NCBI GenBank assembly: GCA_017882375.1
Contig: JADGPP010000014.1
Coordinates: forward strand, 1-52,582
Direction: 5' to 3'
Length of the DNA stretch: 52,582 bases
DNA from: Solirubrobacteraceae bacterium
GTDB taxonomy: Bacteria; Actinomycetota; Thermoleophilia; Solirubrobacterales; Solirubrobacteraceae
This document shows, in pieces, positions 8,847 through 29,317 of the stretch. The notes under the pieces are model-generated. The model was not told the origin of the DNA and searched no databases. It was given only the letters and a program-made list of their open reading frames with translations. Numbering within the stretch: position 1 is the stretch's first letter; every line of letters starts with the position of its first letter. The position numbers were made by a program, and so were the translations under genes.

Positions 8847-8871
8847 GCTCAGATCCAGACCCGGCGGTGTC

Positions 8872-8892: not shown

Positions 8893-9023
8893 TAGGCCTT
8901 GACCCATCCAATCATGCTCGCCTCCCCGCTTTGGCGCGGGGCGGTGCGCGCCCGCAGTTCGGCCTCGAGGCGCCGCAGGCCAGCGCGCAGGTCCTCGGGG
9001 TGACAGAACGTCCGTCCAGACCC

Positions 9024-10584: not shown

Positions 10585-10592
10585 GCAGCGCG

Positions 10593-11148: not shown

Positions 11149-11176
11149 CTGAGAAGGCCAAATCCTCTGCTATAGT
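11149..11176 (+). promoter_or_regulatory. Promoter of fusA-tuf
   Basis: -10 TATAGT (11171-11176) with a weak -35 CTGAGA (11149-11154) at 16-nt spacing, just after the MarR stop. It gives fusA-tuf a promoter independent of rpsL-rpsG. The expected start is at about 11183. Confidence 0.6.
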
Positions 11177-11190
11177 CGGCCCCGTCGCGC

Positions 11191-11259
11191 GTGTGCCCGC
11201 CTCGCTTTGAGCGCCGCTACGACGGAGTCGCAATCAAGATGGAGACCTCGATCAGATAG
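11191..11259 (+). CDS. Candidate leader peptide upstream of fusA
   Basis: A 22-codon frame opening with GTG about 8 nt after the predicted transcript start. It reads MCPPRFERR... and ends ...METSIR-stop; an internal ATG at 11239 would give only METSIR. The last sense codon is AGA, which should be rare in this GC-rich genome, and the stop lies 7 nt before the first arm of the attenuator. The arrangement resembles leader peptides that control transcription attenuation. Too short to prove as coding. Confidence 0.4.
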   Translation: MCPPRFERRYDGVAIKMETSIR

Positions 11260-11265
11260 CGCAGC

Positions 11266-11318
11266 GGACCGGTCCACAAGACCAGTAGCGCGCGTGGACC
11301 CGAGGGGTCCATTTTTTT
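11266..11318 (+). promoter_or_regulatory. Terminator/antiterminator in the fusA leader
   Basis: Terminator: TGGACCC (11295-11301), loop GAG, GGGTCCA (11305-11311), then seven T (11312-11318). Competing pairing: GGTCCAC (11271-11277) is exactly complementary to GTGGACC (11294-11300), which would break the terminator. GGTCC can in turn be sequestered by GGACC at 11266-11270. Four arms in this order are the classic attenuator layout. fusA starts 40 nt downstream. Confidence 0.7.
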
Positions 11319-11358: not shown

Positions 11359-13461
<2,103 letters not shown>

Positions 13462-13594: not shown

Positions 13595-14779
13595 GTGGCG
13601 AAGGAGAAGTTCGAGCGCGACAAGCCGCACGTCAACGTCGGGACCATCGGTCACATCGACCATGGAAAGACGACGCTGACCGCTGCCATCACGACGGTGC
13701 TGGCCGAGAAGGGCGGCGCCGAAGCCCGCACCTTCGCGGAGATCGACAACGCTCCTGAGGAGAAGGAACGCGGCATCACGATCGCCACGTCGCACGTCGA
13801 GTACCAGACCGAGAACCGGCACTACGCGCACGTCGACTGCCCTGGGCACGCCGACTACGTGAAGAACATGATCACGGGCGCCGCGCAGATGGACGGCGCG
13901 ATCCTCGTCGTCTCCGCCGCCGACGGCCCGATGCCGCAGACGCGCGAGCACATCCTGCTTGCCCGCCAGGTCGGCGTGCCGTACATCGTCGTGTTCCTCA
14001 ACAAGGCGGACATGGTCGACGACGACGAGCTGCTGGAGCTGGTCGAGGTCGAGGTTCGCGAGCTGCTCAGCGAATACGACTTCCCCGGCGACGACATCCC
14101 CTTCATCACGGGCTCGGCGCTGAAGGCGCTGGAAGGCGACGAGGCCTATAAGGAGAAGATCATCGAGCTCGCGGCGGCGCTGGACACGTACATCCCCGAG
14201 CCGGTGCGCGAGCTGGACAAGCCGTTTCTGATGCCGGTCGAGGACGTCTTCTCGATCACCGGCCGCGGCACGGTTGCCACGGGCCGCATCGAGCAGGGGA
14301 TCGTCAACACGGGCGACACGGTGGAAATCGTTGGCGTGCACGACTCGACCTCGACGGTCGTCACGGGCGTTGAGATGTTCCGCAAGATCCTCGACCAGGG
14401 TCAGGCCGGCGACAACGTCGGTTGTCTGCTGCGTGGAACCAAGCGCGAGGAGATCGAGCGCGGCCAGGTGCTGTGCAAGCCCGGCTCGATCACGCCGCAC
14501 ACGAAGTACAAGGCCGAGGTCTATGTCCTGAAGAAGGAGGAGGGTGGCCGCCACACGCCGTTCTTCACGGGCTACCGGCCGCAGTTCTACTTCCGCACCA
14601 CCGACGTCACCGGCGTGGCGAAGCTGCCCGAGGGCGTCGAGATGGTCATGCCCGGCGACAACGTCCAGATGGACATCGAGCTGATTCAGCCGATCGCCAT
14701 GGACCAGGGCCTGCGCTTCGCCATCAGGGAGGGCGGTCGCACGGTCGGCTCTGGCGTTGTGACGGAGATCATCGAGTAG
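13595..14779 (+). CDS. tuf: Elongation factor Tu
   Basis: 394 residues; delivers aminoacyl-tRNA to the ribosome as a GTP complex. The GTG start has an upstream AGGAG and gives the typical [27 protein letters not shown]-like N-terminus. G motifs: [21 protein letters not shown] and NKADMVD (Ala replaces the Cys of the common NKCD). Domains II and III are complete, with the GGRHTPFF kirromycin-region segment. A UUCG-capped hairpin follows the stop codon. Confidence 0.98.
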
Positions 14780-15034: not shown

Positions 15035-15361
15035 ATGGCATCTGCCACCCAGAACAAGATCCGCATCCGCCTGAAGGCGTATGACACCTCGGCGATCGAG
15101 TCGGCGGCGAAGGAGATCGTCGAGACGGCGACGCGCACCGGCGCGACCGTCTCCGGTCCCGTGCCGTTGCCTACCGAAAAGAACGTCTACTGCGTGATCC
15201 GCTCGCCGTTCAAGGACAAGGACTCGCGCGAGCACTTCGAGATCCGCACGCACAAGCGCCTGATCGACATCCACCAGCCGACGCCGAAGACGGTCGACTC
15301 CCTCCAGCGCCTGGATCATCTCCCGGCCGGTGTGGACATCGAGATCCGCCTGGCCACCTGA
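15035..15361 (+). CDS. rpsJ: 30S ribosomal protein S10
   Basis: 108 residues, standard length; also NusE, the antitermination partner of Nus[24 protein letters not shown] and [19 protein letters not shown] are characteristic (quoted in parts). First gene of the S10 operon. The 231 bp between the tuf terminator and this ATG contain no gene and must hold the S10 promoter and leader, but I could not identify a clear -10/-35 pair. Confidence 0.97.
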
Positions 15362-15392
15362 CCCTCTACCGCTCTCTGCTCAACCGCTTGCA

Positions 15393-16010
15393 ATGTCCGC
15401 CATCCTCGCCAAGAAGCTCGGCATGACACAGGTCTTCCAGGAGGACGGAAGCGTCGCGCGCGTGACTGTGCTGCAGGCCGGGCCTTGCCCGGTGACGGCG
15501 ATCCGCTCGCCTGAGCGCGACGGCTACAACGCGTTGCAGCTGGCGTTCGGGCAGAGCAAGGAGAAGCACCTGACGAAAGCCGAGCTCGGCCACCTGCGCA
15601 AGGCCGACGCGCCGCCGCTGCGCCACGTCGTCGAGTTCCGCGACGAGGCTGGCGAGCTGCAGGTCGGCGAGAGCGTGACCGTCGAGTCCTTCGAGGTGGG
15701 CGCTCGTGTGAAGATCTCCGGCGTCTCCAAGGGCAAGGGCTTTCAGGGCACGATCAAGCGACACAACTTCGCCAGCGGCCCCAAGTCGCACGGTTCGCAC
15801 AACAAGCGCGCGCCGGGCTCGATCGGCGCGTCGGCGACGCCCTCGCGCGTGCACAAGGGCATCCGCGGACCGGGCCAGATGGGCAACAAGCGCGTGACCC
15901 AGCCGGGCCTGGAGATCGTCTCGATCGACACCAAGGAGAACCTGCTGCTCGTTCGCGGCTCGGTGCCGGGTCCGCGCGGCGGCGTGGTGGAGGTGCGTAG
16001 CAATGCCTGA
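15393..16010 (+). CDS. rplC: 50S ribosomal protein L3
   Basis: 205 residues with start ATG at 15393 (MSAILAKKLGMTQVF). The frame is open further upstream, but only from this ATG does it match the family. The internal loop segment KGFQGTIKRHNFASGPKSHGS and GQMGNKRVTQPGLEIV are typical of L3, whose loop reaches the peptidyl-transferase centre. The start lacks a clear Shine-Dalgarno sequence. It overlaps rplD by 8 bp. Confidence 0.97.
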   Translation: MSAILAKKLGMTQVFQEDGSVARVTVLQAGPCPVTAIRSPERDGYNALQLAFGQSKEKHLTKAELGHLRKADAPPLRHVVEFRDEAGELQVGESVTVESFEVGARVKISGVSKGKGFQGTIKRHNFASGPKSHGSHNKRAPGSIGASATPSRVHKGIRGPGQMGNKRVTQPGLEIVSIDTKENLLLVRGSVPGPRGGVVEVRSNA

Positions 16011-16668
16011 CGCCCCCGTGCTCGGTGCTGGCCGATCTTCGATCGGTAAGAAGGTCAAACTCGATGATGGCGCCTTCGGCGCGAGCTTTCGTGGTCCGCT
16101 GGTGCACCAGAGCGTGCGTGCCGAGCAGGCCGCGCGCAGGCGCGGCACGGCGGCGACGAAGACGCGCGCGATGGTCTCCGGCGGCGGCGCCAAGCCGTGG
16201 CGCCAGAAGGGCACCGGCCGCGCCCGCGCCGGCTCCAGCCGCTCGCCGATCTGGACGGGCGGCGGCGTGGCCTTCGGCCCGCAGCCGCGCTCGTACACGT
16301 TCAAGGTCAACCGCAAGGAGCAGCGCGCGGCGCTGCGCAGCGCGCTGTCGCTGCACGCCGAGCGCCGCTCGCTTGCGATCCTCGACGTGGGCGCCTTCGA
16401 GGCGCCCAAGACGCGCCAGGCCTTCGACCTGCTCGACGACTGGGCACAGAGCGGCCCGACGCTCGTCGTGCTCGCGCCCGAGGAGTCCGCGGCGGCGCTG
16501 TCCTTTCGCAACCTCACCCGCGTGGCCGTGCTGAGCGCCGCCGACGTGGGCGTGACCGATCTTCTCGCCGCGGCCTCGCTGCTGGTCTCCGAGGCCGCGC
16601 TGGCAGAGCTCACGGCGCGTGTCGCCCATCAGTCCGCGCGCCGCGGCGCCGAGGAGGCCAAGGCCTGA
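16003..16668 (+). CDS. rplD: 50S ribosomal protein L4
   Basis: 221 residues. The extended loop KPWRQKGTGRARAGSSRSP (about residues 64-85), which lines the peptide exit tunnel, is intact. In other bacteria L4 can autoregulate the S10 operon; whether it does so here is not visible. The start overlaps rplC by 8 bp, and the stop overlaps the rplW ATG (TGATG). The 5' codons contain the 21-bp sequence also found after rplQ (see findings). Confidence 0.97.
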   Translation: MPDAPVLGAGRSSIGKKVKLDDGAFGASFRGPLVHQSVRAEQAARRRGTAATKTRAMVSGGGAKPWRQKGTGRARAGSSRSPIWTGGGVAFGPQPRSYTFKVNRKEQRAALRSALSLHAERRSLAILDVGAFEAPKTRQAFDLLDDWAQSGPTLVVLAPEESAAALSFRNLTRVAVLSAADVGVTDLLAAASLLVSEAALAELTARVAHQSARRGAEEAKA

Positions 16669-16967
16669 TGGATCACTCACAGGTGATCATCCGCCCGGTC
16701 GTCTCGGAGAAGAGCTACGTGCTCTCTGCGCTGCACCGCTACACCTTCCGCGTGCACCACGAAGCGCACAAGACGCAGATCCGCCAGGCCGTCGAGGCGC
16801 TGTTCGACGTCCACGTCGTCGAGGTGCGCACGTCGACGGTCAAGTCCAAGCCCAAGCGCCGCGGCACCACGACCGGGCGCACGCGTACGTGGAAGAAGGC
16901 CATCGTGCAGGTGCGCGAGGGCGAGTCCATCCCGATCTTCCAGGGCCTCGCGGCCGTGGACTCGTAG
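16668..16967 (+). CDS. rplW: 50S ribosomal protein L23
   Basis: 99 residues from the ATG at 16668, whose A is the last base of the rplD stop. IIRPVVSEKSYVL and the KSKPKRRGTTTGRTRTWKKA loop (part) identify L23, the tunnel-exit docking site for trigger factor and SRP. The frame is open far upstream, but that is a shadow of rplD. Confidence 0.97.
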   Translation: MDHSQVIIRPVVSEKSYVLSALHRYTFRVHHEAHKTQIRQAVEALFDVHVVEVRTSTVKSKPKRRGTTTGRTRTWKKAIVQVREGESIPIFQGLAAVDS

Positions 16968-16976
16968 GAGCCAGCT

Positions 16977-17822
16977 ATGCCCATTCGCAAGCCCAAGCCC
17001 ACGAGCCCCGGTATGCGCTTCGTGTCCTACCCGGACTTCGCCGAGGTCACCAAGTCAAAGCCCGAGAAGACGCTCGTCGAAGGGCTGAAGAAGAGCGGCG
17101 GGCGCAACGCGCACGGGCGCAAGACCTCGCGCCATCGCGGCGGCGGTGCCAAGCGCGCCTACCGCCGGATCGACTTCAAGCGCCGCAAGGACGGTGTCGA
17201 CGCGAAGGTCGCGGCGATCGAGTACGACCCCAACCGCTCGGCCTACATCGCGCTGCTGCACTACGTCGACGGCGAGAAGCGCTACATCCTCGCGCCGCAG
17301 CGGCTGACCGTCGGCATGACTGTCTCCTCCGGCGACACGGCCGAAGTCTTCGTTGGCAACTGCATGGCGCTCGAGCGCATGCCGGTCGGCACGGTGATCC
17401 ACAACGTCGAGCTGCAGCCGGGGCGCGGCGGTCAGATGGCGCGCTCGGCCGGCGCCGCCGTTCAGCTGATGGCCAAGGACGGCGAGATGGCGACCCTGCG
17501 CCTGCCCTCGGGCGAGATGCGCATGGTGCGTGCCGAGTGCCGCGCCACGGTCGGCACGCTCGGCAACGCCGAGCACCAGAACGTGAAGATCGGCAAGGCC
17601 GGGCGCAAGCGCCACATGGGCGTGCGCCCGCAGACGCGCGGCACGGCGATGAACCCTGTCGACCACCCGCACGGCGGCGGCGAGGGCTCGACGACGGCCG
17701 GTCGCCACCCGGTCACGCCGTGGGGCGTGCCGACGCTCGGCTACCGCACGCGCAAGAAGAACAAGGGCTCCGACGCATACATCGTGCGCGGCAGACGACG
17801 TGGAAAGGGCAAGCAGCGATGA
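16977..17822 (+). CDS. rplB: 50S ribosomal protein L2
   Basis: 281 residues, with GGAG 5 nt or so before the [18 protein letters not shown], the [23 protein letters not shown] segment and [13 protein letters not shown], with the catalytic-centre-proximal histidine, are all present. Required for subunit association and peptidyl-transferase assembly. The stop codon directly abuts repeat copy B, which separates it from rpsS by 169 bp, unusually far for this operon. Confidence 0.98.
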
Positions 17823-17968
17823 CCACGCACACGCATGGCGGCGCCGGATCGGCGTCCTCGATCGCTCATGTACCGAAGCCGGGCGACACTCGCTCCGCTC
17901 GCATCCCCGTTTCGGCCAGCACATTTCGCTCACTGCGTCCTTGCCCGGCTTGCCCTGCGTGTGCGTGG
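17823..17968 (+). repeat. Structured intergenic repeat, copy B (rplB-rpsS)
   Basis: Perfect 13-bp terminal inverted repeat CCACGCACACGCA (17823-17835) / TGCGTGTGCGTGG (17956-17968), beginning at the base after the rplB stop. Inside it, GCCGG pairs with CCGGC and GGC with GCC. This copy has a longer centre (about 45 bp more), where ATGT/ACAT and CCGAA/TTCGG still pair. Shared blocks: GGCGTCCTCG and CTGCGTCCTTGCC. Confidence 0.75.
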
Positions 17969-17991
17969 GAGCGCGAGAGGGAGGAACAGCG

Positions 17992-18264
17992 ATGAGTCGC
18001 TCCAGCAAGAAGGGTCCGTGGGTGGAAGAGCGCTTGATGAACCGCATCGAAGCGCTGAACACCGCCAACAACAAGAAAATGCTGCGCACGTGGTCGCGCG
18101 CGTCGACGATCTTCCCGGAGATGGTCGGCCACACGATCGCCGTGCACGACGGCAAGAAGCACGTTCCCGTGTTCATCAGCGAGTCGATGGTCGGGCACAA
18201 GCTCGGCGAGTTCGCGCCCACGCGCATGTTCCGCGGTCACGCCGGCTCCGGGCGGGTCAGATGA
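17992..18264 (+). CDS. rpsS: 30S ribosomal protein S19
   Basis: 90 residues; the ATG at 17992 is preceded by [23 protein letters not shown], the [19 protein letters not shown] region and [14 protein letters not shown] are diagnostic. Binds the 30S head next to S13. Flanked on both sides by structured repeats (copies B and C), so this small gene is isolated by about 170 and 133 bp in an otherwise tightly packed operon. Confidence 0.97.
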
Positions 18265-18265
18265 G

Positions 18266-18367
18266 CCTGAGCACGCATGGCGGCGCCGGATCGGCGTCCT
18301 CGGTCGCTCGCGTGCAAAGCACGCCACGCTCCCTGCGTCCTTGCCCGGCTTGCCCTGCGACCTCAGG
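18266..18367 (+). repeat. Structured intergenic repeat, copy C (rpsS-rplV)
   Basis: Starts 2 nt after the rpsS stop. Outer arms pair as CCTGAG/CTCAGG (18266-18271, 18362-18367) and CGCA/TGCG (18274-18277, 18356-18359). Inner arms are GGC/GCC and GCCGG (18285-18289)/CCGGC (18345-18349). The centre hairpin is GCGTGC-AAA-GCACGC (18310-18324). About 80 of the 100 positions match copy B where the two align, by eye. Confidence 0.75.
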
Positions 18368-18397
18368 ACGGCCGGGTTCGTTTCCGGAGGTGCTGGC

Positions 18398-19015
18398 ATG
18401 ACCGCCGAGCAGGAGAAGGACGACGTGACGCCGGCGGACGCGCCCGAGGCCAAGAAACCGGCCGCGAAGAAAGCTGTGAGGAAACCGGCCAAAGCGGCGG
18501 CCAAAGCCGACACGAAGGCCGCCGACGCCAAAGCCGCCGAGGGCAAGGAACCGGCCGCGAAAAAAGCTGCCAAGAAACCGGCCGCCGCGAAAGAGCCGGC
18601 GGCAAGCGAGAAGAAAGAGCGCTCCAAAGCCGCCGCCAAACCGGCGCGTCGCAGGGTCGTGCGCGCGCACGCCCGCTACGTGCGCACCTCTGCGCGCAAG
18701 GCGCGCATGGTCTGCGGGCACCTGCGCGGCAAGTCCGTGCAGGAGGCGCGCGCTATCCTCGCATTCACTCCTCGTGAGGTGGCGCGCGACTGGAGCAAGC
18801 TGCTCGAGTCGGCAGTGGCGAACGCCGAGAGCAACCACGAGTTGCTCGAGGACGATCTGATCGTCCGTGAGGCCTACGCCGACGAGGGGCCGACGATCAA
18901 GCGCTTTCGCCCGCGCGCGATGGGCCGCGCGACGCCGATTCGCAAGCGCACCAGCCACCTGACGATCGCACTGACCACCGACACCGCGCAGCGCACAACC
19001 AAGAGAAACGGCTAG
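18398..19015 (+). CDS. rplV: 50S ribosomal protein L22 with Lys/Ala-rich N-terminal extension
   Basis: 205 residues from the ATG at 18398, which has GGAGG 7 nt upstream. Residues 88-205 are an ordinary L22 ([21 protein letters not shown]; the NAESNHEL region). Residues 1-87 are a disordered-looking Ala/Lys/Pro stretch with repeated KKPAAKKA-type motifs, like histone H1 tails. L22 lines the exit tunnel and its N-terminus faces the solvent side. The extension has the same codon style as the core, so a frame error is unlikely. Confidence 0.95.
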
Positions 19016-19025
19016 AGAGACAGGT

Positions 19026-19949
19026 ATGGGACAGAAGGTTCATCCAGAGGCAATGCGCGTGGGCTACATCCACGACTGGAAGTCGAACTGGTTCACCGAA
19101 CGCCACTTCGCCGAGTACCTGGCCGAGGACGTGCGCATTCGCGAGCACATCACCAACAAGCTCGCGCACGCGGGGTTGTCGAGCATCACGATCCGCAAGG
19201 ACGCAAACGAGCTCGAGGTCAACATTCACACCGCGCGCCCGGGCATCGTGATCGGCAAGTCGGGCAGCGAAGTCGATGCGCTGCGCCGCGACCTGCACAA
19301 GATGACCAGCAAGCAGATCAAGGTCAACATCCTCGAGATCAAGCGCCCCGAGCTCGACGCGTCGCTCGTCGCGCAGTCGATCGCCGAGCAGCTGCAGAAC
19401 AGGGTCGCCTTCCGGCGGGCGATGAAGCGCGCGCTGACGAGCGCGATGCGCTCCGGCGCAAAGGGCGTGAAGGTGCAGGTCTCCGGACGTCTCGGCGGCG
19501 CCGAGATGGCCCGCACCGAAAGCTACTCCGACGGTCGCGTGCCGCTGCACACGATGCGCGCGGACATCGACTACGGCTTCTACGAGTCGCGCACGACGTT
19601 CGGGCGCATCGGCGTCAAGTGCTGGATCAACAAGGGCGAGATCATGCCCGAGGGCTACACCGGCACCGACCTCACCGACCTCACCGCGCCGGCGGCCCCG
19701 AGCTCTGATCGCGACAGTCGCGGAGGACGCGACGGGCGCGATGGACGCGGGCGCGGTCGCGGCGGCGGCGGTCCGGGCGGCGGCAGCGGCGGCGGACGCG
19801 GACGCGGCGGACCGGGCGGCCAGGGTGGCGGCGGACGTGGACCGGGTGGCTTCGGTGGCCAAGGCGCACGTGGCGGCGGCGGCGGTGGCGGGCGCGGTCC
19901 CGGCGGCGGTGGGCGCGGCGGACCCCGTCCAGGCGGCGGTGGGCGCTGA
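19026..19949 (+). CDS. rpsC: 30S ribosomal protein S3 with Gly/Arg-rich C-terminal tail
   Basis: 307 residues against about 210-275 in most bacteria. Residues 1-220 are canonical S3: [15 protein letters not shown], the KH-domain GxxG in [10 protein letters not shown], and [12 protein letters not shown]. Residues 222-307 are almost only Gly, Arg, Pro, Asp and Gln in RGG/GRG repeats, an RNA-binding-type disordered tail next to the mRNA entry site. The stop overlaps the rplP start by one base (CTGATG). Confidence 0.96.
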
Positions 19950-20359
19950 TGCTCTCTCCCAAGCGCGTCAAGCACCGCAAGCAGCACCGTGGACGCCGTG
20001 CCGGCACCTCGCGTGGTCAGGTCAAGGTCCAGTTCGGCGAGTACGGCCTGAAGGCGCTCGAGGGTGGCTGGCTGACCAACCGTCAGATCGAGGCCGCACG
20101 TGTCGCGATGACGCGCAAGATCAAGCGTGGCGGCAAGGTGTGGATCAACGTCTTCCCCGACAAGCCCGTCACCAAGAAGCCCGCCGAGACGCGCATGGGC
20201 TCGGGCAAGGGCTCGCCGGAAGGCTGGGTCGCGGTGGTCAAGCCCGGGCGCGTGATGTTCGAGCTGGCCGGCGTGTCCGAGCCGCTCGCGCGCGACGCGA
20301 TCCGGCTGGCGGCGCACAAGCTTCCGGTCAAGTCCAAGTTCGTGCTGCGCGAGGACTGA
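19949..20359 (+). CDS. rplP: 50S ribosomal protein L16
   Basis: 136 residues. [37 protein letters not shown] and [19 protein letters not shown] (the tRNA-contacting loop) are unmistakable. Needed for 50S maturation and A-site tRNA positioning. It follows rpsC with a one-base overlap and precedes rpmC by 7 bp. Confidence 0.98.
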
Positions 20360-20366
20360 GGCTGAG

Positions 20367-20570
20367 ATGAAGGCGAAGGAGATCCGCGACTTGGAGGACA
20401 GCGAGCTGGTCAAACAGATCGGCGTGCTGCGCAAAGAGGTGTTCGGCCTGCGCTTCGCCAACGCGACCGGCGAACTGGACAACACCGCAGGCGTCGGACG
20501 CGCCAAGCGCGAGCTCGCGCGCGCACTGACGGTCGCGCACGAGCGCGAGCTCGGAACAAAGCGCAACTGA
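20367..20570 (+). CDS. rpmC: 50S ribosomal protein L29
   Basis: 67 residues, helical. [30 protein letters not shown]-like start and [13 protein letters not shown] end (parts). Sits near the exit tunnel beside L23. In its expected place between rplP and rpsQ. Confidence 0.96.
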
Positions 20571-20596
20571 GCATTAGCTAAGAAGAAACGGAAGAC

Positions 20597-21307
20597 ATGG
20601 CTGACGAGAAAGACAACGAGACCCCCGCAACGCCCGACGACACCGAGGCGCAGACGCCCGACGCTCCAGAGGCTCAGGAGCCGCAGGCCGAGGCGCCCGA
20701 GGCCGCGGCGCCCGAGGCCGCGGCAGCTGAGGCCGAGACGCCTGAGGCAGACGAGCCTGCGGCCGAGGAGCCAGTCGCCGAGGCAGCTGAGGCGCCCCAG
20801 GCGGCCGAGGAGGTTCCCGCGAGCGAGCCCGAGGAGCAGCTTTCCCCGAAGGAGCGCCGGCGCAGGACGCGTTCCAAGCACGAGCGTCAGGCGCGGCCGA
20901 CCCGTACGCCGGAGGAGCGTCAGGCCGACCGGCTGGCGACGCGCAAGACCAAGGCCGTGAGCCGTCGCGCGCGACGCCTGCAGGAACGCGCGAAAGCCGC
21001 CGAGCGTCGTGCCGCAGCGCCGGCCGCCGAGCCACTTGCGCCGGTGCACGCGCCGGTCGAGGGCAGGCGCAGGATGCGCCAGGGGATCGTCATCTCAGAC
21101 AAGGCCTCCAAGACGATCACCGTGCGCATCGACGTTGCGCGCCGCCACCGTCGTTACGAGAAGATCGTGCGCAGCTCGAGTACGTTGCACGCGCACGACG
21201 AGAACAACGACGCGCACGAAGGCGACGTGGTGCGCGTGATCGAGAGCCGGCCGCTGTCGCGCTCAAAGCGCTGGGCGCTCGTCGACGTCTTGGAGCGCGC
21301 GCGATGA
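20597..21307 (+). CDS. rpsQ: 30S ribosomal protein S17 with long N-terminal extension
   Basis: 236 residues, about 2.8 times the usual 80-90. The S17 OB-fold core is residues 161-236 ([41 protein letters not shown]). Residues 1-82 are an acidic Ala/Glu/Pro low-complexity stretch. Residues 83-160 are basic ([17 protein letters not shown]) and probably helical. The ATG at 20597 has a nearby GAAGAAACGGAAG stretch, and no other good start exists nearer the core. The stop overlaps the rplN ATG (ATGA). S17 is a primary 16S rRNA binder, so the tail would protrude from the 30S body. Confidence 0.92.
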
Positions 21308-21672
21308 TCCAAAACGAGACGAGATTGCGCGTCGCGGACAACACGGGCGCGCGGGAGATCCTGTGCATCCGCGTGAAGGGCGGCTCGCAGCGTCGCTACG
21401 CGTTCGTGGGCGACGTGATCACGGCGACGGTCAAGCAGGCCAACCCGCAGGGCGCCGTGAAAAAGGGCGAGGTCGTCACGGCGGTGGTCGTGCGCACGAA
21501 GAAGCCGATCGGCCGCGACGACGGTACCTACATTGCCTTCGATGAGAACGCCGCGGTGATCATCGACGACCAGAACAACCCGCGCGGCACGCGCGTGTTC
21601 GGGCCGGTCGCGCGCGAACTGCGCGAGCGCAACTTCATGAAGATCGTCTCGCTGGCGCCGGAGGTTCTGTGA
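21304..21672 (+). CDS. rplN: 50S ribosomal protein L14
   Basis: 122 residues, standard. [24 protein letters not shown], then [11 protein letters not shown] and [13 protein letters not shown]. Forms intersubunit bridge B8. Starts inside the rpsQ stop (ATGA), so the S10 and spc groups are joined here without a break. Confidence 0.98.
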
Positions 21673-22043
21673 TGGCCCGCGCAACGGTTGCCAAGCGGCG
21701 CAACAAGCTGAAGATCCGCTCTGACGACCACGTCAAGGTCACGGCGGGCAAGGACCGCGGCAAGACCGGCAAGGTGCTGCGTGTGGAACCGGCCAAGCAA
21801 CGACTGTTCGTCGAGGGTCTGAACATGGTCAAGCGCGCGGTGCGCCCGCAGGTCAACCAGAGCTCCTCCACGCTCCCCGGCACCGAGGGGCAGCTCGGCG
21901 GCGTGATCGAGCGCGAGGGGCCGATCCACATCTCAAACGTTATCCTGCTCGACGCCAAGGGCAACCCCACGCGCGTGCGCATCGAGCGCAAGAGCGGCTC
22001 GCGCGTGCGCATCGCCAAGAGCACCGGGGCGGAGCTGGACTGA
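21672..22043 (+). CDS. rplX: 50S ribosomal protein L24
   Basis: 123 residues from the ATG at 21672 (a GTG three bases earlier is possible). KOW motif: [23 protein letters not shown]; then [11 protein letters not shown]. Assembly initiator of the 50S subunit. The start overlaps the rplN stop by one base. Confidence 0.97.
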
Positions 22044-22045
22044 GT

Positions 22046-23056
22046 ATGGAGGCTACGACCACAGACGCACCGCCCGCACGCCTGAAGGCCCGGTATTTCG
22101 AGGAGATCCGCCCGACGCTGATCGAGCGCTTCGAGTACTCGTCGGTGATGCAGGCCCCGCGCGTGGAGAAGATCACACTGAACATGGGCGTCGGACTGGC
22201 CAAGCAGGACTCCAAAGTGCTCAAGGCGGCCACCGAGCAGCTCGCGACGATCGCCGGCCAGCAGCCGAGCGTGCGCCGCGCGCGCAAGTCGATCGCGGCC
22301 TTCAAACTGCGCGAGGGCATGCCCGTCGGCGTCGCCGTGACGCTGCGCGGCGAGCGCGCCTACGAGTTCCTCGACCGCCTCGTCTCGATCGCGATTCCGC
22401 GGATTCGCGACTTCCGCGGGCTCAACCCGCGCTCGTTCGACGGCCGCGGCAACTACTCGATGGGCGTGCGCGAGCAGATCATCTTCCCGGAGATCGACTA
22501 CGACGCGATCGACCAGGTGCGCGGGCTGGACGTCACGATCTCCACGAGCGCCGCCAGCGACCGCGAGGCGTTCGCGCTGCTGCAGGCGCTCGGCATGCCG
22601 TTCGCGGCCCAGGGTCGCCCCAAGGGCTTTGACCCGCAGGCCGATGAGGCCGAGGCCGAGGCGCGCGCCGCCGCACACGCGGCCAAGGTCGCCGAAGCGC
22701 CGGCCCCGGCAGCCAAAGCTGCGCCCCAGACGCCAGCGCCCGAGGCCGCTGAGCCCGAGGCAGCGGACGAGACTGCCGAGGAGCCGGCCGAGACTGCCGA
22801 GGAGCCGGCCGAGACTGCCGATGCGTCGGCCGAGACCGCTGAGCCCGAGACATCGGACGAGACGGCCGAGGATGATGCCGCAGCCGAGACCGCCGAGCTC
22901 GAGGCGCAGGCTGCGGCCGAGACAGCCGAGGTTTCCGAGGACGCAGAGCAGGGTGACGAGCCCGAGGCCACGGCCGAGCAGGCCGCCGGCGCAGAGGCAG
23001 CCGCAGCAGAGCAGGAGCAAGCCGCAGAGACCGCCGAGAAAGAGAGCACCGACTGA
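22046..23056 (+). CDS. rplE: 50S ribosomal protein L5 with acidic C-terminal tail
   Basis: 336 residues; the L5 core is about 1-190 ([42 protein letters not shown]) and is complete. Residues 191-336 are a low-complexity Ala/Glu/Thr/Pro tail with ETAEEPAE-type tandem repeats; the DNA at about 22780-22830 shows 24-bp direct repeats. L5 binds 5S rRNA and contacts P-site tRNA. The tail stays in frame right up to the ATG of rpsN (1-bp overlap), so it is not an assembly artefact of a missing stop. Confidence 0.94.
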
Positions 23057-23241
23057 TGGCCAAGACATCTCAGCGCGTCAAACAGACGCGCACACCAAGA
23101 TTCAAAACCCGCGCCTATACTCGGTGCAGCCGTTGCGGACGTCCGCGCGCGGTGTATCGCAAGTTCGGGGTGTGCCGCATCTGTTTGCGCGAGCTCGCCC
23201 ACAACGGCCAGATCCCCGGGATGACGAAGTCCTCCTGGTAG
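23056..23241 (+). CDS. rpsN: 30S ribosomal protein S14, zinc-binding (type Z)
   Basis: 61 residues. Two CxxC pairs, CSRC and CRIC, form the zinc ribbon of the short S14 form; it ends GMTKSSW, typical of the family. The zinc-containing paralogue is the constitutive one in Actinobacteria; any zinc-free copy would be elsewhere. Overlaps rplE by one base. Confidence 0.98.
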
Positions 23242-23277
23242 CGACGGCGCCACGACTTCTGAGATAGCGATCAAACC

Positions 23278-23685
23278 ATGTCGATGACAGATCCCATTGC
23301 CGACTTCCTCACGCGCGTGCGCAACGCGATCCACGCTGCGCACGAGACGGTTGAGATCCCCGCGTCCAAGACCAAGAGCGAGCTCGCGCGCATTCTCACC
23401 GAGCAGGGCTACATCGACTCCTACTCGGTGATCCCCGAGCCAGACGGCGGCCCCGGTCAGCTGATCCAGATCCGCTTGAAGTACACCGAGGACCGCCGCT
23501 CGGCGATCGCCGGCCTACGCCGCGTGTCGCGCCCCGGCCGGCGCACGTACGTCGACGCCAAGCACATCCCCAAGGTGCTCGGCGGCATGGGCACTTCGAT
23601 CGTCTCGACCTCGCACGGTGTGATGACCGGGCACGACGCGCGCTCGGCGGGCGTCGGCGGCGAGGTCCTGGCGCAGGTCTGGTGA
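23278..23685 (+). CDS. rpsH: 30S ribosomal protein S8
   Basis: 135 residues. MTDPIADFLTRVRNA (after MS), the RISRPGRR-like segment RVSRPGRRTYV, and the C-terminal SHGVMTGHDARSAGVGGEVLA. A 16S rRNA binder and, in E. coli, the spc operon autoregulator. 6 bp before rplF. Confidence 0.97.
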   Translation: MSMTDPIADFLTRVRNAIHAAHETVEIPASKTKSELARILTEQGYIDSYSVIPEPDGGPGQLIQIRLKYTEDRRSAIAGLRRVSRPGRRTYVDAKHIPKVLGGMGTSIVSTSHGVMTGHDARSAGVGGEVLAQVW

Positions 23686-23691
23686 GCTGAC

Positions 23692-24225
23692 GTGTCGCGC
23701 ATCGGCAGACAGCCCATCGCAGTTCCGACCGGCGTGACCGTCGCGATCGAGCCCAACGAGGTCCGTGTCAACGGCCCCAAGGGAGAACTCTCCGAGCGCA
23801 TTCACAAGGACATCGAGGTCAAGCAGGACGGCGAGCAGCTGGTCGTCACCCGCCCGACCGACCGCGGCGAACACCGCGCGCTGCACGGCTTGACGCGCTC
23901 GCTGGTGGCGAACATGGTGCAGGGCGTGACAGCGGGCTATGAGAAGCGTCTGGAGATCCAGGGCGTCGGCTATCGCGCGCAGCTGAAGGGCAAGAACCTC
24001 GAGCTCGCTGTCGGCTACTCGCACCCCGTGCCGATCCCGGCGCCCGACGGGATCGAATTCGAAGTGCCCCAGCCGACGCGTGTCGTCGTCAAAGGCATCT
24101 CCAAGCAGCTCGTCGGCGAGACGGCCGCGATCATCCGCAAGCAGCGCCCGCCCGAGCCCTACAAGGGCAAGGGCATTCGCTACGAGGGCGAGTACGTCCA
24201 GCGCAAGGTAGGAAAGCGCGCATGA
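23692..24225 (+). CDS. rplF: 50S ribosomal protein L6
   Basis: 177 residues from a GTG start ([17 protein letters not shown]). The two-fold repeated L6 structure is evident, with [21 protein letters not shown] and the C-terminal [18 protein letters not shown]. The TGA stop lies in the left arm of repeat copy D, which fills most of the 127 bp to rplR. Confidence 0.97.
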
Positions 24226-24321
24226 GCACGCATACCGTCGCTGGATCTTCGTCCTCGGTCGCTCGCGTGCGTAGCACGCCACGCTTCCTGCGTCCTCGCC
24301 CAGCTTGGTCTGCGCGCTCAT
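24222..24321 (+). repeat. Structured intergenic repeat, copy D (rplF-rplR)
   Basis: Outer arms ATGAGCACGCA (24222-24232) and TGCGCGCTCAT (24311-24321) pair at 10 of 11 positions. Inner arm GCTGG (24240-24244)/CCAGC (24300-24304) replaces the GCCGG/CCGGC of copies B and C, a compensatory change. Centre hairpin GCGTGC-GTA-GCACGC (24265-24279). The left arm contains the rplF stop codon. Confidence 0.75.
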
Positions 24322-24352
24322 GCGATGCGTCGAGTCGATCGGGGGCTCGCTC

Positions 24353-24706
24353 ATGAGCGTCATCACCAAGGGCGACCGCCGTCTCAAGCGCCGCAGGCGC
24401 GTGCGCGCGAAGGTGTCGGGCACGGCCAGCCGGCCGCGCATCTCCGTGTTTCGCTCAAACCAGGGCATCTGTGCGCAGCTGATCGACGACACCGCCGGTC
24501 GCACGCTCGCGGCCGTCAACTGGTACGAGCCCGACCTGCGCAAGCTGGGCAAGCCCGAGCGCACCAAGCGCGCGGGCGAGACGCTCGCCGAGCGGGCCAA
24601 GGCCGCCGGCGTCGCCGAGGCCGTGTTCGACCGCGGCGGCTATCGCTACCACGGGCATGTTCGTGCGTTCGCCGAGGCGATCCGCGAGAGCGGCATAACC
24701 GTCTAG
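24353..24706 (+). CDS. rplR: 50S ribosomal protein L18
   Basis: 117 residues with start ATG at 24353, preceded by GGGGG; an in-frame TTG at 24305 would begin inside the repeat and is rejected. [24 protein letters not shown] and [20 protein letters not shown] are typical. Binds 5S rRNA together with L5. Confidence 0.96.
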
Positions 24707-24748
24707 GCGTCCAGGCATCCCGCGACCGCTACCCTCTTCACTGCTCTC

Positions 24749-25390
24749 ATGTCAATAACCGTAGACCGCTCAGTCACTCCCGCCGGCCTGGATCTCCAGG
24801 AGCGCGTGGTCGAGATCAACCGCGTGGCCAAGGTCGTCAAGGGTGGCCGGCGCTTCTCGTTCACGGCGCTCGTCGTCGTCGGCGACGAACGCGATGTCGT
24901 GGGCATCGGCTACGGCAAGGCCAACGAGGTGCCGCTGGCGATCCAGAAGGGCGTCGAGCGCGCGAAGAAGGACCTCTTCCGCGTGCCCAAGCACGGCAGC
25001 ACGATCACCCACCAGACGACCGGCATCTTCGGCGCCGGGCGCGTCCTGCTCAAGCCGGCATCGCCGGGTACCGGCGTGATCGCCGGCGGTGGCGTGCGCG
25101 CGGTGCTCGAGCTCGCCGGCATCCACGACATCCTCTCCAAGAGCCTCGGCACGCAGAACCCGATCAACCTCGTCAAGGCAACTGTCGCCGGCCTGCGCGG
25201 CCTGCGCACCCCGGCCGAGGTCGGCGAGCTGCGCGGCCTGTCGATCAACAAGGTTCTCGGCCTCAGCAGCGAGCCGGCCAATGGCGCCCCGGCGGCCGGC
25301 GAGGTCTCCGCCGCGAGCGAGGCGGAAGCGACCGCCGAGCCCGAAGCCGAGCCCGTCGTCGCCGCAGCCAGCGAGGAGGCGTCATCCTGA
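24749..25390 (+). CDS. rpsE: 30S ribosomal protein S5 with acidic C-terminal tail
   Basis: 213 residues. Core to about 170: [38 protein letters not shown] and [21 protein letters not shown]. The last ~42 residues are Ala/Glu/Pro-rich and acidic, beyond most S5 proteins. Important for decoding fidelity. Stop and rpmD start overlap (TGATG). Confidence 0.96.
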
Positions 25391-25575
25391 TGGCAGCCCT
25401 CACCGTGACCCAGCGCAAGTCGCGCAACGGCGCGAACAAGAAACAGCTCGACACGCTGCGCTCGCTTGGATTGCGGCGAATCGGACACAGCGTGCGGGTG
25501 CAGGACTGCGATCAGGCGCGCGGAATGCTGCACGCCGTGCGCCACCTCGTTGAGGTCAAGGAGGGCTCGCGATGA
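25390..25575 (+). CDS. rpmD: 50S ribosomal protein L30
   Basis: 61 residues from the ATG at 25390. TVTQRKSRNGANKKQLDTLRSLGLRRIGHS matches L30 (quoted in part). It begins on the last base of the rpsE stop codon and itself overlaps rplO by 4 bp (ATGA), so all three are translationally coupled. Confidence 0.96.
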   Translation: MAALTVTQRKSRNGANKKQLDTLRSLGLRRIGHSVRVQDCDQARGMLHAVRHLVEVKEGSR

Positions 25576-26078
25576 GCCCTGACGAAGACGCCAAGCCGCA
25601 GCGCATCGGGCTGCACAGCCTCGCGCCGGCCCCCGGCAGCCGTCGTCCGCGCAAGCGCGTCGGCCGCGGCGAAGGCTCGGGTACGGGCAAGACTGCGGGG
25701 CGCGGGCAGAAGGGCGCGGGCTCGCGCTCGGGCTCCAAGCGCCGCGCGCGCTTCGAGGGCGGCCAGATGCCGATCCACATGCGCATGCGCAAGCTTCGCG
25801 GGCCGCACATGAAGAAGTCGATGCCGTTCGAGCCCTTCCGCACGCACACCCAGCCGGTCAACATCGCCTCGTTGGAGAGCCGCTTCGACGCCGGCGCCGA
25901 GGTGACGATCGAGCTGATGCAGGCCAACGGGCTGGGCACCCGCAAGGACGTCCCGATCAAGGTGCTCGCCAACGGCGAGCTGTCAAAGGCGCTGACCGTG
26001 CACGCGCACGCCTTCAGCGCCAGCGCTAAAGAGCGCATCGAGGCAGCCGGCGGCACCTGCAAGCTCGTCGAGCGCTAG
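25572..26078 (+). CDS. rplO: 50S ribosomal protein L15
   Basis: 168 residues. The Gly/Arg-rich N-terminal arm (RKRVGRGEGSGTGKTAGRG, QKGAGSRSGSKRRARFEGGQ) and the C-terminal domain GELSKALTVHAHAFS fit L15, a late 50S assembly protein. Slight acidic N-terminal addition (MSPDEDAKPQ). secY follows after 107 bp. Confidence 0.97.
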   Translation: MSPDEDAKPQRIGLHSLAPAPGSRRPRKRVGRGEGSGTGKTAGRGQKGAGSRSGSKRRARFEGGQMPIHMRMRKLRGPHMKKSMPFEPFRTHTQPVNIASLESRFDAGAEVTIELMQANGLGTRKDVPIKVLANGELSKALTVHAHAFSASAKERIEAAGGTCKLVER

Positions 26079-26185
26079 AGAGCCGTACGGGCCGTGCAAG
26101 CGGCGGCACGCACCAGCGCATCCACTAGAATCCAGCGCTCCGCGGGAGGGAGTGCAGCGGCGCTCTGAGCCGCGGAGCAAAGCCC

Positions 26186-27457
26186 ATGCTCTCGACGATT
26201 CTCAACGCATTCCAGGTTGCGGACATCCGCAAGAAGATCGCCTTCACGGCGGGGATGCTGCTGATCTACCGCCTCGGCTCGCACATCCCCGTGCCGGGCG
26301 TCAACCTCAGCGCCGTCAACAACATCCAAAAGGAGTTCGGCGGGTCGAACATCCTCGGGCTGCTGAACCTATTCTCCGGCGGCGGCCTGTCGCGGATCGC
26401 CCTGTTCGCGCTGGGCATCATGCCCTACATCACCGCCTCGATCATCCTGCAGCTGCTGCAGGTCGCCGTGCCCTCGCTGGAAAAGCTCTCCAAGGAAGGC
26501 GAGGTCGGCCAGGCGCGGATCACGCAGTACACGCGCTACCTCACCGTCGGCCTGGCCTTCGCGCAGTCGATCGGCTACGTCTTCCTGTTCCACACGCTGC
26601 AGGCGAAAGCCGGCGAATCGGTCGTCACGCACTTCGACGCGCCGCACATCTTCTTGATCGTCATCTGCCTGACGACCGGCTGCGTGCTGCTGATGTGGAT
26701 CGGCGAGCTGATCACCCAGCGTGGCATCGGCAACGGCATCTCGCTGCTGATCTTCGCCTCGATCGTCGCGCGCCTGCCGAGCGGCATCCAGACGTGGTGG
26801 ACCTCGCAGAACCAGGTCTTCAAGGTGATGATGCCCTTCCTCGTGCTCGCCGTCGTCGCCGGCATCGTGTTCGTGCAGGAAGGCCAGCGGCGGATTCCCG
26901 TGCAGTACGCAAAGCGCGTGATCGGGCGGCGCATGACCGAGGGCGGTCAGACCTACCTGCCGTTGCGCGTGAACATGGCCGGCGTGATCCCGGTGATCTT
27001 CGCGGCGAGCATCATGGCCTTCCCGCCGACCGTCGGGCAGCTCGTGAAAACGCACTGGGGCCAGCAGATCTCCGACTTCTTCTCGCCCAACGGCTGGCAC
27101 TACGTGGTCGGCGAGTCGCTGTTCATCCTCGTCTTCACATACTTCTACACGGCCGTCACCTTCAACCCGGTCGACCAGGCGGACAACCTGAAGAAGTACG
27201 GCGGCTTCATCCCCGGCGTCCGGCCGGGGCGGCCGACCGCCGAATTTCTCGACCGCGTCCTCGCGCGCCTGACGTTCCCCGGCGCGCTGTTCCTCGCGGC
27301 CGTCGCCGCGCTGCCGACGATCCTGATCGCGCGCACGCATCAGAACATCCCGCTCGGGGGTACCTCGATCCTGATCGTGATCGGCGTCGCGCTGGAAACG
27401 ATGAAGCAGCTCGAGGCGCAGCTGATGATGCGAAGTTACGAGGGCTTCTTGAAGTAG
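26186..27457 (+). CDS. secY: Preprotein translocase subunit SecY
   Basis: 423 residues with ten hydrophobic helices; channel-forming subunit of the Sec translocon. It starts MLSTILNAFQVADIRKKIAF; the SGGGLSRIALFALGIMPYITASI and GGTSILIVIGVALETMKQLEAQL segments are signatures (parts). It ends EGFLK. A TAGAAT (26126-26131) about 55 bp upstream could be a -10 box for extra transcription of secY-adk-map, but no -35 is clear. The last codons are duplicated 70 bp downstream. Confidence 0.97.
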   Translation: MLSTILNAFQVADIRKKIAFTAGMLLIYRLGSHIPVPGVNLSAVNNIQKEFGGSNILGLLNLFSGGGLSRIALFALGIMPYITASIILQLLQVAVPSLEKLSKEGEVGQARITQYTRYLTVGLAFAQSIGYVFLFHTLQAKAGESVVTHFDAPHIFLIVICLTTGCVLLMWIGELITQRGIGNGISLLIFASIVARLPSGIQTWWTSQNQVFKVMMPFLVLAVVAGIVFVQEGQRRIPVQYAKRVIGRRMTEGGQTYLPLRVNMAGVIPVIFAASIMAFPPTVGQLVKTHWGQQISDFFSPNGWHYVVGESLFILVFTYFYTAVTFNPVDQADNLKKYGGFIPGVRPGRPTAEFLDRVLARLTFPGALFLAAVAALPTILIARTHQNIPLGGTSILIVIGVALETMKQLEAQLMMRSYEGFLK

Positions 27458-27529
27458 TCATTCGGGGGGAGGTCGGGAGGCGGGGCCTGCCCCCTTCCCG
27501 CGTCAGTGCGAGGGCTTCTTGAAGTAGTC
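27439..27529 (+). repeat. Duplicated secY 3' end (70-bp direct repeat)
   Basis: The 21 bp at 27439-27459, coding the last residues of SecY plus the stop and two further bases, recur exactly at 27509-27529. Between the copies a GC-rich hairpin (GGGGC-CT-GCCCC at 27482-27493 with flanking G/C complementarity from 27475 to 27499) could terminate or process the secY mRNA. Looks like a tandem-duplication or slippage scar. Confidence 0.7.
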
Positions 27530-27563
27530 CCGCTGGCAGCGCAACGGATAGGCTGCCTCGCAC

Positions 27564-28241
27564 TTGTCGGAACTGAACCTCATACTGCTCGGTCCGCCGG
27601 GCGCGGGGAAGGGCACCCAGGCCGAGCGCCTGCGCGAGGACTTCACCCTGCCGCACATCTCCACCGGCGACATGCTGCGCGCGGAGGTGACGCAGGGAAG
27701 CGATCTGGGTCGCGAGGCCAAGCGCTACATGGATGCCGGCGACCTCGTTCCCGACGAGGTGATCATCTCGATGATCATCAAGCGAGTCGAGGGGCCCGAT
27801 GCCGCCGAGGGCTTCCTGCTCGACGGCTTCCCGCGCAACGAGCAGCAGGCCGACGCGCTCGCGGAGGCCCTCACCGGCCTCGGCCGACGCCTCAGCGCGG
27901 CGCTGCTGATCGAGGTCGGCGACGACGAGCTCGTGCGACGGCTGGCCGGGCGGCGCGTGTGCGTGAAGAATCCCAGCCACATCTACCACGTCGAGTTCGA
28001 CCCGCCCAAGCACGAGGACGTGTGCGACCAGGACGGCTCGCGCCTGATCCAGCGAGACGACGACAAGGAGGAGACGATCCGCCGGCGCCTGCAGGTCTAC
28101 CACTCCCAGACCGAGCCGCTGATCGACTACTACGATCGCGCCGGCCAGCTGCGCCGCTTCGACGGGACTCGCGACCCCGACGAGGTGCACGCGCGCATCA
28201 GGGCGACCGTCGCGGCGCTGCGCCTGGAGGAGAAGCTCTAG
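27564..28241 (+). CDS. adk: Adenylate kinase
   Basis: 225 residues from a TTG start (MSELNLILLGPPGAGKGTQ); P-loop GPPGAGKGT, NMP-binding HISTGDMLR and LLDGFPRNEQQ are intact. The LID (about residues 128-155) is the long type with CVKNPSHIYH and CDQDG: two cysteines and an Asp of the zinc-binding pattern are present, but Asn stands where the second Cys is normal, so zinc binding is doubtful. Usual secY-adk-map order. Confidence 0.96.
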   Translation: MSELNLILLGPPGAGKGTQAERLREDFTLPHISTGDMLRAEVTQGSDLGREAKRYMDAGDLVPDEVIISMIIKRVEGPDAAEGFLLDGFPRNEQQADALAEALTGLGRRLSAALLIEVGDDELVRRLAGRRVCVKNPSHIYHVEFDPPKHEDVCDQDGSRLIQRDDDKEETIRRRLQVYHSQTEPLIDYYDRAGQLRRFDGTRDPDEVHARIRATVAALRLEEKL

Positions 28242-28262
28242 GGGGCCAGCTAAGCTCCCCGG

Positions 28263-29066
28263 GTGATCATCAAGAAGTCCCCAGAGGAGATCGAGAAGAT
28301 GGCGCGCGCCGGCGAGATCCTCGTGGCGGCGCTGGAAGATGTCGAGTCGCGAGTGGCGCCCGGGGTGAGCACCGAGGAGCTCGATCGCGCCGCCGAGCGC
28401 CTGATCCGCTCCCGCGGCGGCGTGCCGACGTTCAAGGGCTATCGCGGCTTTCCCGGCTCGATCTGCGCTTCGCCGAACGCGATGGTCGTGCACGGCATCC
28501 CCGGCCCGTATCGCCTCAAGGACGGCGACATCATCTCGATCGACGTCGGCGTAACGCTCGACGGCTGGGTCGCCGACGCCGCGCGCACGCTGCCCGTCGG
28601 CGAGATCGGCGCGCAGGAGCAGAACCTCCTGCGCGCGACCGAGCAGTCGCTGCACGCCGGCGTCGCCGAGTGCCGCGCAGGCAACCGCATGGGCGACATG
28701 TCCAGCGCCATCCAGCGTGTCGCCGAGGGCGCGGGGCTGTCGGTCGTGCGCTCGCTCGTCGGGCACGGGGTCGGGCGCAGCATGCACGAGGACCCGCAGG
28801 TGCCGAACTACGGCAAGCCCGGCAAGGGTCCGCTGCTGGAAGAGGGCATGGTGCTCGCCGTCGAGCCGATGATGACCGCCGGTGCAGCCTCGGTGCGCGT
28901 CGGCGGCGACGGCTGGGCGATCTTCTCCCAGGACGGCTCGCCGGCGGCCCATTTCGAGTTCACGATCGCGATCACCGGCGACGGGCCGAGGGTCCTCACG
29001 CCGTGGCATCTCGCCGCAGCAGCGCACGCGGGCGAGCACGCTCCGCAGGGCGCCGCGAGCACCTAG
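28263..29066 (+). CDS. map: Methionine aminopeptidase, type I
   Basis: 267 residues from a GTG start. Metal ligands in order: the Asp in SIDVGVTLDGW, the Asp in VADAART, His in GHGVGRSMHEDP, Glu in VLAVEPM and the final Glu in AHFEFTIAI. Removes initiator Met co-translationally. The C-terminal ~25 residues are Ala/His-rich extra. In most bacteria infA comes next; here it is absent. Confidence 0.96.
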   Translation: MIIKKSPEEIEKMARAGEILVAALEDVESRVAPGVSTEELDRAAERLIRSRGGVPTFKGYRGFPGSICASPNAMVVHGIPGPYRLKDGDIISIDVGVTLDGWVADAARTLPVGEIGAQEQNLLRATEQSLHAGVAECRAGNRMGDMSSAIQRVAEGAGLSVVRSLVGHGVGRSMHEDPQVPNYGKPGKGPLLEEGMVLAVEPMMTAGAASVRVGGDGWAIFSQDGSPAAHFEFTIAITGDGPRVLTPWHLAAAAHAGEHAPQGAAST

Positions 29067-29197
29067 GAGTTGCTACCATCAGGAGTCCTGCTCGATGCGA
29101 GGTGTATGTTCGTGGTCGAGCGATCTCCACGACTTGGTAGCGGCGGCCGCAACGGCAGCCAGAGCCGGGTCGCGGAACCCAGCCGCCGAAAGGGATC

Positions 29198-29311
29198 ATG
29201 AAGGTACGACCGTCGGTCAAGCCGATGTGCGAGAAATGCAAGATCATCCGCCGCCACGGGGTGGTGCTGGTGATCTGCCAGAACAAGCGCCACAAGCAGC
29301 GTCAGGGGTAG
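29198..29311 (+). CDS. rpmJ: 50S ribosomal protein L36
   Basis: 37 residues, [21 protein letters not shown]...; zinc ligands CxxC, a later Cys and His (CQNKRHKQ). Normal size and type. The 131 bp before it do not code for a protein I can recognise; they contain a short CGTGG/CCACG hairpin around 29109-29130 and cannot fit infA. Confidence 0.97.
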
Positions 29312-29317
29312 AGGCAG

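What the first reader, a model, noticed from the sequence alone, without database searches (positions are those of the whole stretch)
11191..11318. fusA leader looks like a peptide-controlled transcription attenuator
After the TATAGT promoter a 22-codon leader ORF (11191-11259) ends in a rare AGA codon and stop, 7 nt before the arms GGACC (11266), GGTCCAC (11271), GTGGACCC (11294) and GGGTCCA (11305), followed by T7. A ribosome slowed at the leader's end would cover the first arm and free the second to pair with the third, cancelling the terminator and letting fusA be made. Control of EF-G by slowed translation would be a direct feedback. I know of no such described leader in front of fusA.
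Basis: partly seen in the sequence, partly recalled or inferred. Interest (0 to 1): 0.8.

Follow-up and report, generated by a model that had tools for sequence, protein, structure and literature searches.

The report
Six-codon leader switch before elongation-factor genes
Across one order of soil actinobacteria (Solirubrobacterales), the operon for translation elongation factors and ribosomal proteins starts with a tiny six-codon gene and a premature stop signal, which looks like a switch by which translation itself decides whether the operon is transcribed.

Summary
Its last six codons are: ATG GAG ACC TCG ATC AGA TAG (11239-11259, METSIR*). A six-codon mini-ORF, about 33 nt before an intrinsic terminator, lies upstream of fusA in 70 of 81 upstream regions from the window's family. 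It recurs in three sister families of the order (36 genera sampled), but not in other orders of the class, where fusA follows rpsG directly. The length is nearly invariant (90 of 98 exactly six codons) while the sequence drifts. The consensus is Met-Glu/Asp-Thr/Ser-x-x-Thr. Arm 1 is not conserved. In one genus fusA has left the operon and the leader sits before tuf, so EF-G-specific feedback is unlikely. Best reading: a new ribosome-mediated transcription attenuator of the (fusA-)tuf-S10 operon reporting translation speed on a minimal ORF. The sign of the response and any activity are unproven.

The parts
11168..11176 (+). extended -10 promoter element TGCTATAGT; -35-like CTGAGA at 11149-11154; transcription start expected about 11183 (inferred)
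   Evidence: TGCTA[T/G] at a near-constant distance before the terminator in nearly all relatives
11239..11259 (+). conserved six-codon mini-ORF ATG GAG ACC TCG ATC AGA TAG (METSIR*)
11259..11293 (+). hairpin H2 directly behind the stop codon (GCGC..GGTC/GACC..GCGC), competing with the antiterminator in the window's genus
   Evidence: folded alone -14.2 kcal/mol; covariation only in part of the family
   Evidence: conserved as GGTCC in most of the genus
11294..11318 (+). intrinsic terminator: stem GTGGACCC/GGGTCCA(T), loop GAG, T7 (T 11312-11318)
   Evidence: 8 pairs, -12.1 kcal/mol; compensatory changes among relatives
11359..13461 (+). fusA (EF-G, 700 aa)
   Evidence: relatives
13595..14779 (+). 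tuf (EF-Tu), next gene of the operon; takes the place behind the leader in genus g19
15035..29701 (+). S10 (15035-15361), L3 (15330-16010) and on through the ribosomal-protein genes (S10/spc/alpha type order)
   Evidence: by eye from translations

Best explanation
A ribosome-mediated transcription attenuator. RNA polymerase starts about 55 nt before a six-codon mini-ORF. A ribosome loads on it (SD-poor in most clades), reads Met-Glu-Thr/Ser-x-x and meets a rare A-ending last codon, then a stop (mostly UAG). The bases 5-14 nt after the stop can pair with the terminator's 5' arm (antiterminator) or leave it free to form the terminator. A ribosome delayed on or before the last codon leaves these bases free, so the antiterminator can form and the (fusA-)tuf-S10 operon is read through. 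A ribosome that finishes promptly changes what can pair (covering the antiterminator arm in several clades) and favours termination. So slow translation, whatever its cause (low EF-Tu ternary complex, EF-G, amino acids, drugs), raises synthesis of the elongation factors and ribosomal proteins. Shown: the mini-ORF, its constant length, the amino-acid-level and last-codon conservation, the terminator, the order-wide distribution, the link to tuf when fusA is gone. Inferred: translation of the ORF, the switch, its direction and its signal.
For: 70 of 81 upstream regions in the family carry the six-codon ORF before a terminator. Same unit in sister families f2-f4. Stop-to-terminator spacing 27-42 nt, mode 32. 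Codon 3 is Thr by all four codons or Ser by both TCN and AGC, codon 2 Glu or Asp: selection on the peptide or its tRNAs. Last sense codon A-ending in 70 of 87 versus 14 of 348 for the four codons before it; ACA is 3 of 178 Thr codons and AGA 0 of 182 Arg codons in six window genes. Antiterminator complementarity exceeds swapped partners in f2-f4 (p 0.003), g17+g10 (p 0.006) and overall (p 0.0002), weaker in the window's genus (p 0.08). ORF pairing with the post-stop region is avoided. With the last codon in the A site the arm is engaged on average 0.5-0.7, and 0.95 in the window.
Against: No transcript ends, ribosome footprints or reporters. Antiterminator covariation is not significant in the other genus groups of the window's family (p 0.36), and the swap tests do not correct for relatedness. 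A genus-balanced version with free energies gave p 0.18. The predicted effect of a ribosome on the stop differs in sign between clades. No run of regulatory codons. About 20% of ordinary window genes also end in an A-ending codon (6 of 30), so part of that bias is general. Some relatives keep promoter and terminator but have no mini-ORF (L122, L129, L235, L240, L241).
Confidence: 0.6

Rival explanations
1. Same attenuator, opposite emphasis: what is sensed is whether ribosomes load and finish the mini-ORF at all. Free initiating ribosomes sit on the stop, cover the antiterminator arm and shut the operon; scarcity of ribosomes opens it. It measures initiation capacity, not elongation speed.
For: In g17+g10 and f2-f4 a ribosome on the stop lowers antiterminator pairing (0.58 to 0.38; 0.68 to 0.52) while a ribosome-free RNA keeps it at 0.65-0.69. 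Same logic as the Mtb ilvB1 attenuator at its stop codon (PMC13236596).
Against: In the window itself the ribosome-free RNA leaves the terminator arm mostly free (0.24 paired) and the ribosome at the end engages it (0.98). It does not explain the rare last codon.
Confidence: 0.25
2. The mini-ORF senses ribosome-targeting antibiotics: drugs that stall after Ser/Thr/Ala-containing short peptides freeze the ribosome on the leader and induce the operon.
For: Thr/Ser-rich short peptides; uORFs that sense several ribosome drugs are known (PMC12121999, title and abstract only). That phenicols prefer Ala/Ser/Thr contexts is my own knowledge.
Against: The target is core translation genes, not a resistance gene; a rare last codon is not needed for drug stalling. 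A special case of the best explanation rather than its opposite.
Confidence: 0.08
3. Autogenous control by a ribosomal protein or elongation factor binding the leader RNA (rpsL-leader or S10-leader type); the mini-ORF is incidental.
For: The operon encodes ribosomal proteins; rpsL/fusA attenuators of this kind were predicted in other phyla (PMC2965389).
Against: No conserved structure except the terminator; no Rfam match even at E 5; conservation follows codons, reading frame and stop.
Confidence: 0.07
4. Specific EF-G feedback: EF-G shortage slows the ribosome on the leader and so raises fusA.
For: fusA is first in the operon in nearly all carriers.
Against: In genus g19 the leader controls tuf, with a divergent fusA elsewhere; the one such fusA locus read has no leader. 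Any cause of slow translation would act in the same way.
Confidence: 0.1

Closest known systems
Leader-peptide transcription attenuators (trp/his/ilv type; in actinobacteria ilvB1NC of M. tuberculosis, PMC13236596, and ilvBNC of Corynebacterium, PMC10272879)
   Same: short translated-looking ORF, intrinsic terminator, competing antiterminator whose 5' arm lies just behind the stop codon
   Different: only six codons, constant length, no run of codons for one amino acid; controls translation factors and ribosomal proteins rather than biosynthesis
rpsL-leader attenuators, including the one predicted before fusA in streptococci (Naville and Gautheret 2010, PMC2965389)
   Same: predicted premature terminator in front of str-operon genes
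   Different: no leader peptide described there; thought to bind S7; no shared sequence seen; here the element is a coding mini-ORF and belongs to Solirubrobacterales
whiB7/wblC and other uORF attenuators that sense translation stress (whiB7 known here from a citation in PMC13236596; E. coli topAI uORF, PMC12121999, abstract only)
   Same: uORF translation status decides expression of the gene behind it
   Different: target genes, ORF length, order-wide constancy, rare last codon

Membership tests
Ribosome-mediated (leader-peptide) transcription attenuator | conserved short ORF in the leader with start, stop and coding-type conservation | tested here: met
Ribosome-mediated (leader-peptide) transcription attenuator | intrinsic terminator between the ORF and the first gene | tested here: met
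Ribosome-mediated (leader-peptide) transcription attenuator | antiterminator that excludes the terminator, with an arm within reach of the ribosome at the ORF's end | tested here: inconclusive
   supported in f2-f4 and g17+g10, borderline in the window's genus, not in the rest of the family
Ribosome-mediated (leader-peptide) transcription attenuator | run of codons for the amino acid made by the operon (biosynthetic class only) | tested here: not met
   so not a biosynthetic-type attenuator, though it may still work like one
Ribosome-mediated (leader-peptide) transcription attenuator | read-through depends on translation of the ORF | not testable with these tools
   needs reporter, term-seq or ribosome profiling
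Ribosomal-protein leader (autogenous) | conserved structured protein-binding site or match to a described family | tested here: not met
   apart from the terminator no family-wide structure
EF-G feedback device | element always tied to fusA | tested here: not met
   before tuf in g19
Antibiotic-sensing leader | drug-dependent stall on the ORF | not testable with these tools
   no assay

The most novel reading that the evidence does not exclude
The mini-ORF is a minimal speedometer for translation: a fixed six-codon track ending in a rare NNA codon, whose decoding time relative to RNA polymerase sets transcription of the elongation-factor and ribosomal-protein operon across a whole bacterial order.
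Probability: 0.35. Interest if true: 0.85.

Novelty: new variant of a known kind. Interest (0 to 1): 0.68.

Why it matters
How bacteria match the supply of elongation factors and ribosomal proteins to translation demand is mostly explained by ppGpp and by ribosomal proteins binding their own mRNA. A conserved leader that lets translation speed itself set transcription of fusA-tuf-S10 would be a direct and simple alternative, in a group of soil bacteria whose gene control is hardly studied. The constant six-codon length and the rare last codon make it easy to test.

Tried and rejected
The 22-codon GTG ORF: its first 16 codons are not conserved. Arm 1 GGACC: varies within the genus. A hairpin between ORF and post-stop arm (anti-antiterminator): pairing there is avoided, not favoured. 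Pairing of the 5' region with the post-stop region or the terminator arm: no excess over swapped partners; earlier by-eye matches such as GCGTCG/CGACGC hold in some relatives only. Known RNA families: no match. Spread outside the order: the hits in f5, f7 and G686 are chance terminators or unrelated genes; a scan of 396 genomes of the phylum found no convincing case outside the order. Repeated copies in the own genome: one real match only. Free-energy swap test with one sequence per genus group was not significant, and helix extension in f2-f4 from a fixed GGG core was not either (partly because the core was misplaced in two sequences); the arm-level score was. Literature search found no leader-peptide attenuator of fusA, within open-access papers only.

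Full report
What was checked. fusA starts at 11359 and is followed by tuf, S10, L3 and a long run of ribosomal-protein genes (genes after tuf read by eye). rpsL lies at 4862-5152 in the same contig, and rpsG-like sequence, judged by eye from its antisense frame, at about 4.7-5.6 kb. Both are separated from fusA by three unrelated genes, so the str operon is split here.

Relatives. fusA upstream regions were taken from 79 genomes of the window's family besides the window, plus one locus from genome contigs (L003, apparently the same contig as one of the 79). Reading them shows at once a conserved unit: promoter, about 55-65 nt, then ATG GAG ACC xxx xxx xxx stop, 27-42 nt, terminator, T tract, and then fusA. 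70 of the 81 regions hold a six-codon ORF before a terminator; three more have five or seven codons. A model built from 61 of them (R1) finds one real copy in the own genome and 112 of 399 genomes of the class. Reading the hits and other fusA upstream regions places it in four families of the order. L003 is named Solirubrobacterales, which gives the order its name here. In the families sampled outside the order (f5-f9) fusA follows rpsG directly and has no such leader; weak hits there are chance. A phylum scan adds only chance.

Is the mini-ORF coding? Ninety of 98 aligned cases have exactly six codons although the sequence differs widely (54 distinct ORFs in the family alone). Start (ATG, GTG, TTG) and stop (TAG 67, TAA 17, TGA 5) vary as codons do. 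Codon 3 is Thr by ACC, ACG, ACT or ACA, or Ser by TCN or AGC; codon 2 is Glu or Asp. That is conservation of residues, not of bases. The most striking position is the last sense codon: A-ending in 70 of 87 distinct cases, against 14 of 348 for the four codons before it and 4.4% of third positions in six window genes. It is mainly ACA, in the window's genus also AGA; these are 3 of 178 Thr and 0 of 182 Arg codons in six window genes. Relatedness was not corrected for, but the bias is seen in 35 of 36 genus-level groups. Six of 30 ordinary window genes also end in an A-ending codon, so a smaller general bias exists.

Structures. The terminator is kept everywhere with compensatory changes, one of them in the window itself. 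The antiterminator was tested by asking whether the bases 5-24 nt after the stop pair better with their own terminator arm than with those of other sequences: yes in f2-f4 (p 0.003) and g17+g10 (p 0.006), borderline in the window's genus (p 0.08), no in the rest of the family (p 0.36), all together p 0.0002. In f2 and f3 a CGGGC motif about 8 nt after the stop faces GCCCG of the terminator. Against dinucleotide shuffles the mean over genus groups was z -0.59, 26 of 36 negative. A stricter free-energy test with one sequence per group was not significant (p 0.18). ORF-to-post-stop pairing is avoided, and the 5' region shows no consistent partner, so there is no general 1:2 hairpin of the trp type. 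In the window's genus a local hairpin H2 does compete with the antiterminator.

How it may work. Masking bases as a ribosome would (3' edge about 16 nt from the first base of the P-site codon, my assumption from toeprinting) and folding what is free: with the last codon in the A site, the terminator arm is engaged by upstream pairing at 0.52-0.68 on average in all clades and 0.95 in the window. With the stop in the A site it falls to 0.38 in g17+g10 and 0.52 in f2-f4, but stays at 0.69 in the window's genus and 0.98 in the window. The common element is that a ribosome delayed on the rare last codon permits antitermination; what a ribosome on the stop does is clade-dependent in this crude calculation. 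I therefore commit to a translation-speed sensor with antitermination on delay, and rate the direction as little better than even. That the leader is a translation-dependent attenuator at all I hold at about 0.8.

Against EF-G specificity. In genus g19 (G114, G118-G120) the same leader, with codon 2 changed to CAG, stands directly before tuf. In those genomes the best fusA match is elsewhere and divergent (71-72% identity), and the locus read in G120 has no leader (L162). In G114 a frame antisense to an rpsG-like sequence precedes the leader, so fusA seems to have been lost from between rpsG and tuf (by eye). The constant target is thus the (fusA-)tuf-S10 operon.

Known work. Attenuators before rpsL in several phyla and before fusA in streptococci were predicted by Naville and Gautheret (PMC2965389), without leader peptides. 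In actinobacteria the ilvB1NC leader of M. tuberculosis is proposed to work by a ribosome covering about 26 nt at the stop and blocking the antiterminator (PMC13236596). Two large surveys of bacterial noncoding RNAs searched here do not mention fusA or this order (PMC11109978, PMC8632094). No Rfam family matches. Most subscription papers and preprints could not be searched.

Verdict. Observation partly confirmed, with the ORF corrected to 11239-11259. Interpretation partly supported. A new variant of leader-peptide attenuation, on a new kind of target, conserved across an order; function untested.

Noticed in passing
L195-L198, L255 (G114, G118-G120, genus g19): fusA has left the operon; the leader now stands before tuf, with mini-ORF MQTxGT (MQIxGT in L198); a divergent fusA lies elsewhere and has no leader in the locus read (L258).
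   Followed up: partly
L158, L160, L161 (genus g20), upstream of fusA: Promoter kept, but neither the six-codon ORF nor the terminator was found; instead a different long leader ending ...AAGTCGTCTGCGTACCTCG.AAGCT.TTTC before fusA, alike in the three, possibly another regulator.
   Followed up: no
L122, L129 (family f1) and L235, L240, L241 (family f2), upstream of fusA: Promoter and terminator-like hairpin kept only tens of bases apart, with no mini-ORF.
   Followed up: no
11319 onward and relatives, just behind the T tract: GCCC(G) is frequent directly after the T tract across the order and could pair with GGGC of the terminator arm; purpose unknown.
   Followed up: no
11183-11200 and relatives, about the expected transcription start: A CGTCGC/CGCCTCG-like stretch shortly after the -10 box is conserved even where the mini-ORF is absent; may be part of the promoter.
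   Followed up: no
5898-11144: A repeat-rich protein (5898-8846), an MFS-type transporter (9064-10584) and a MarR-like regulator separate rpsL-rpsG from fusA in this genome; functions judged by eye only.
   Followed up: no
4800-4870, upstream of rpsL: rpsL appears to have its own extended -10 (TGCTAGCAT) only about a dozen bases before an ATG, so it may be nearly leaderless, without an attenuator.
   Followed up: no
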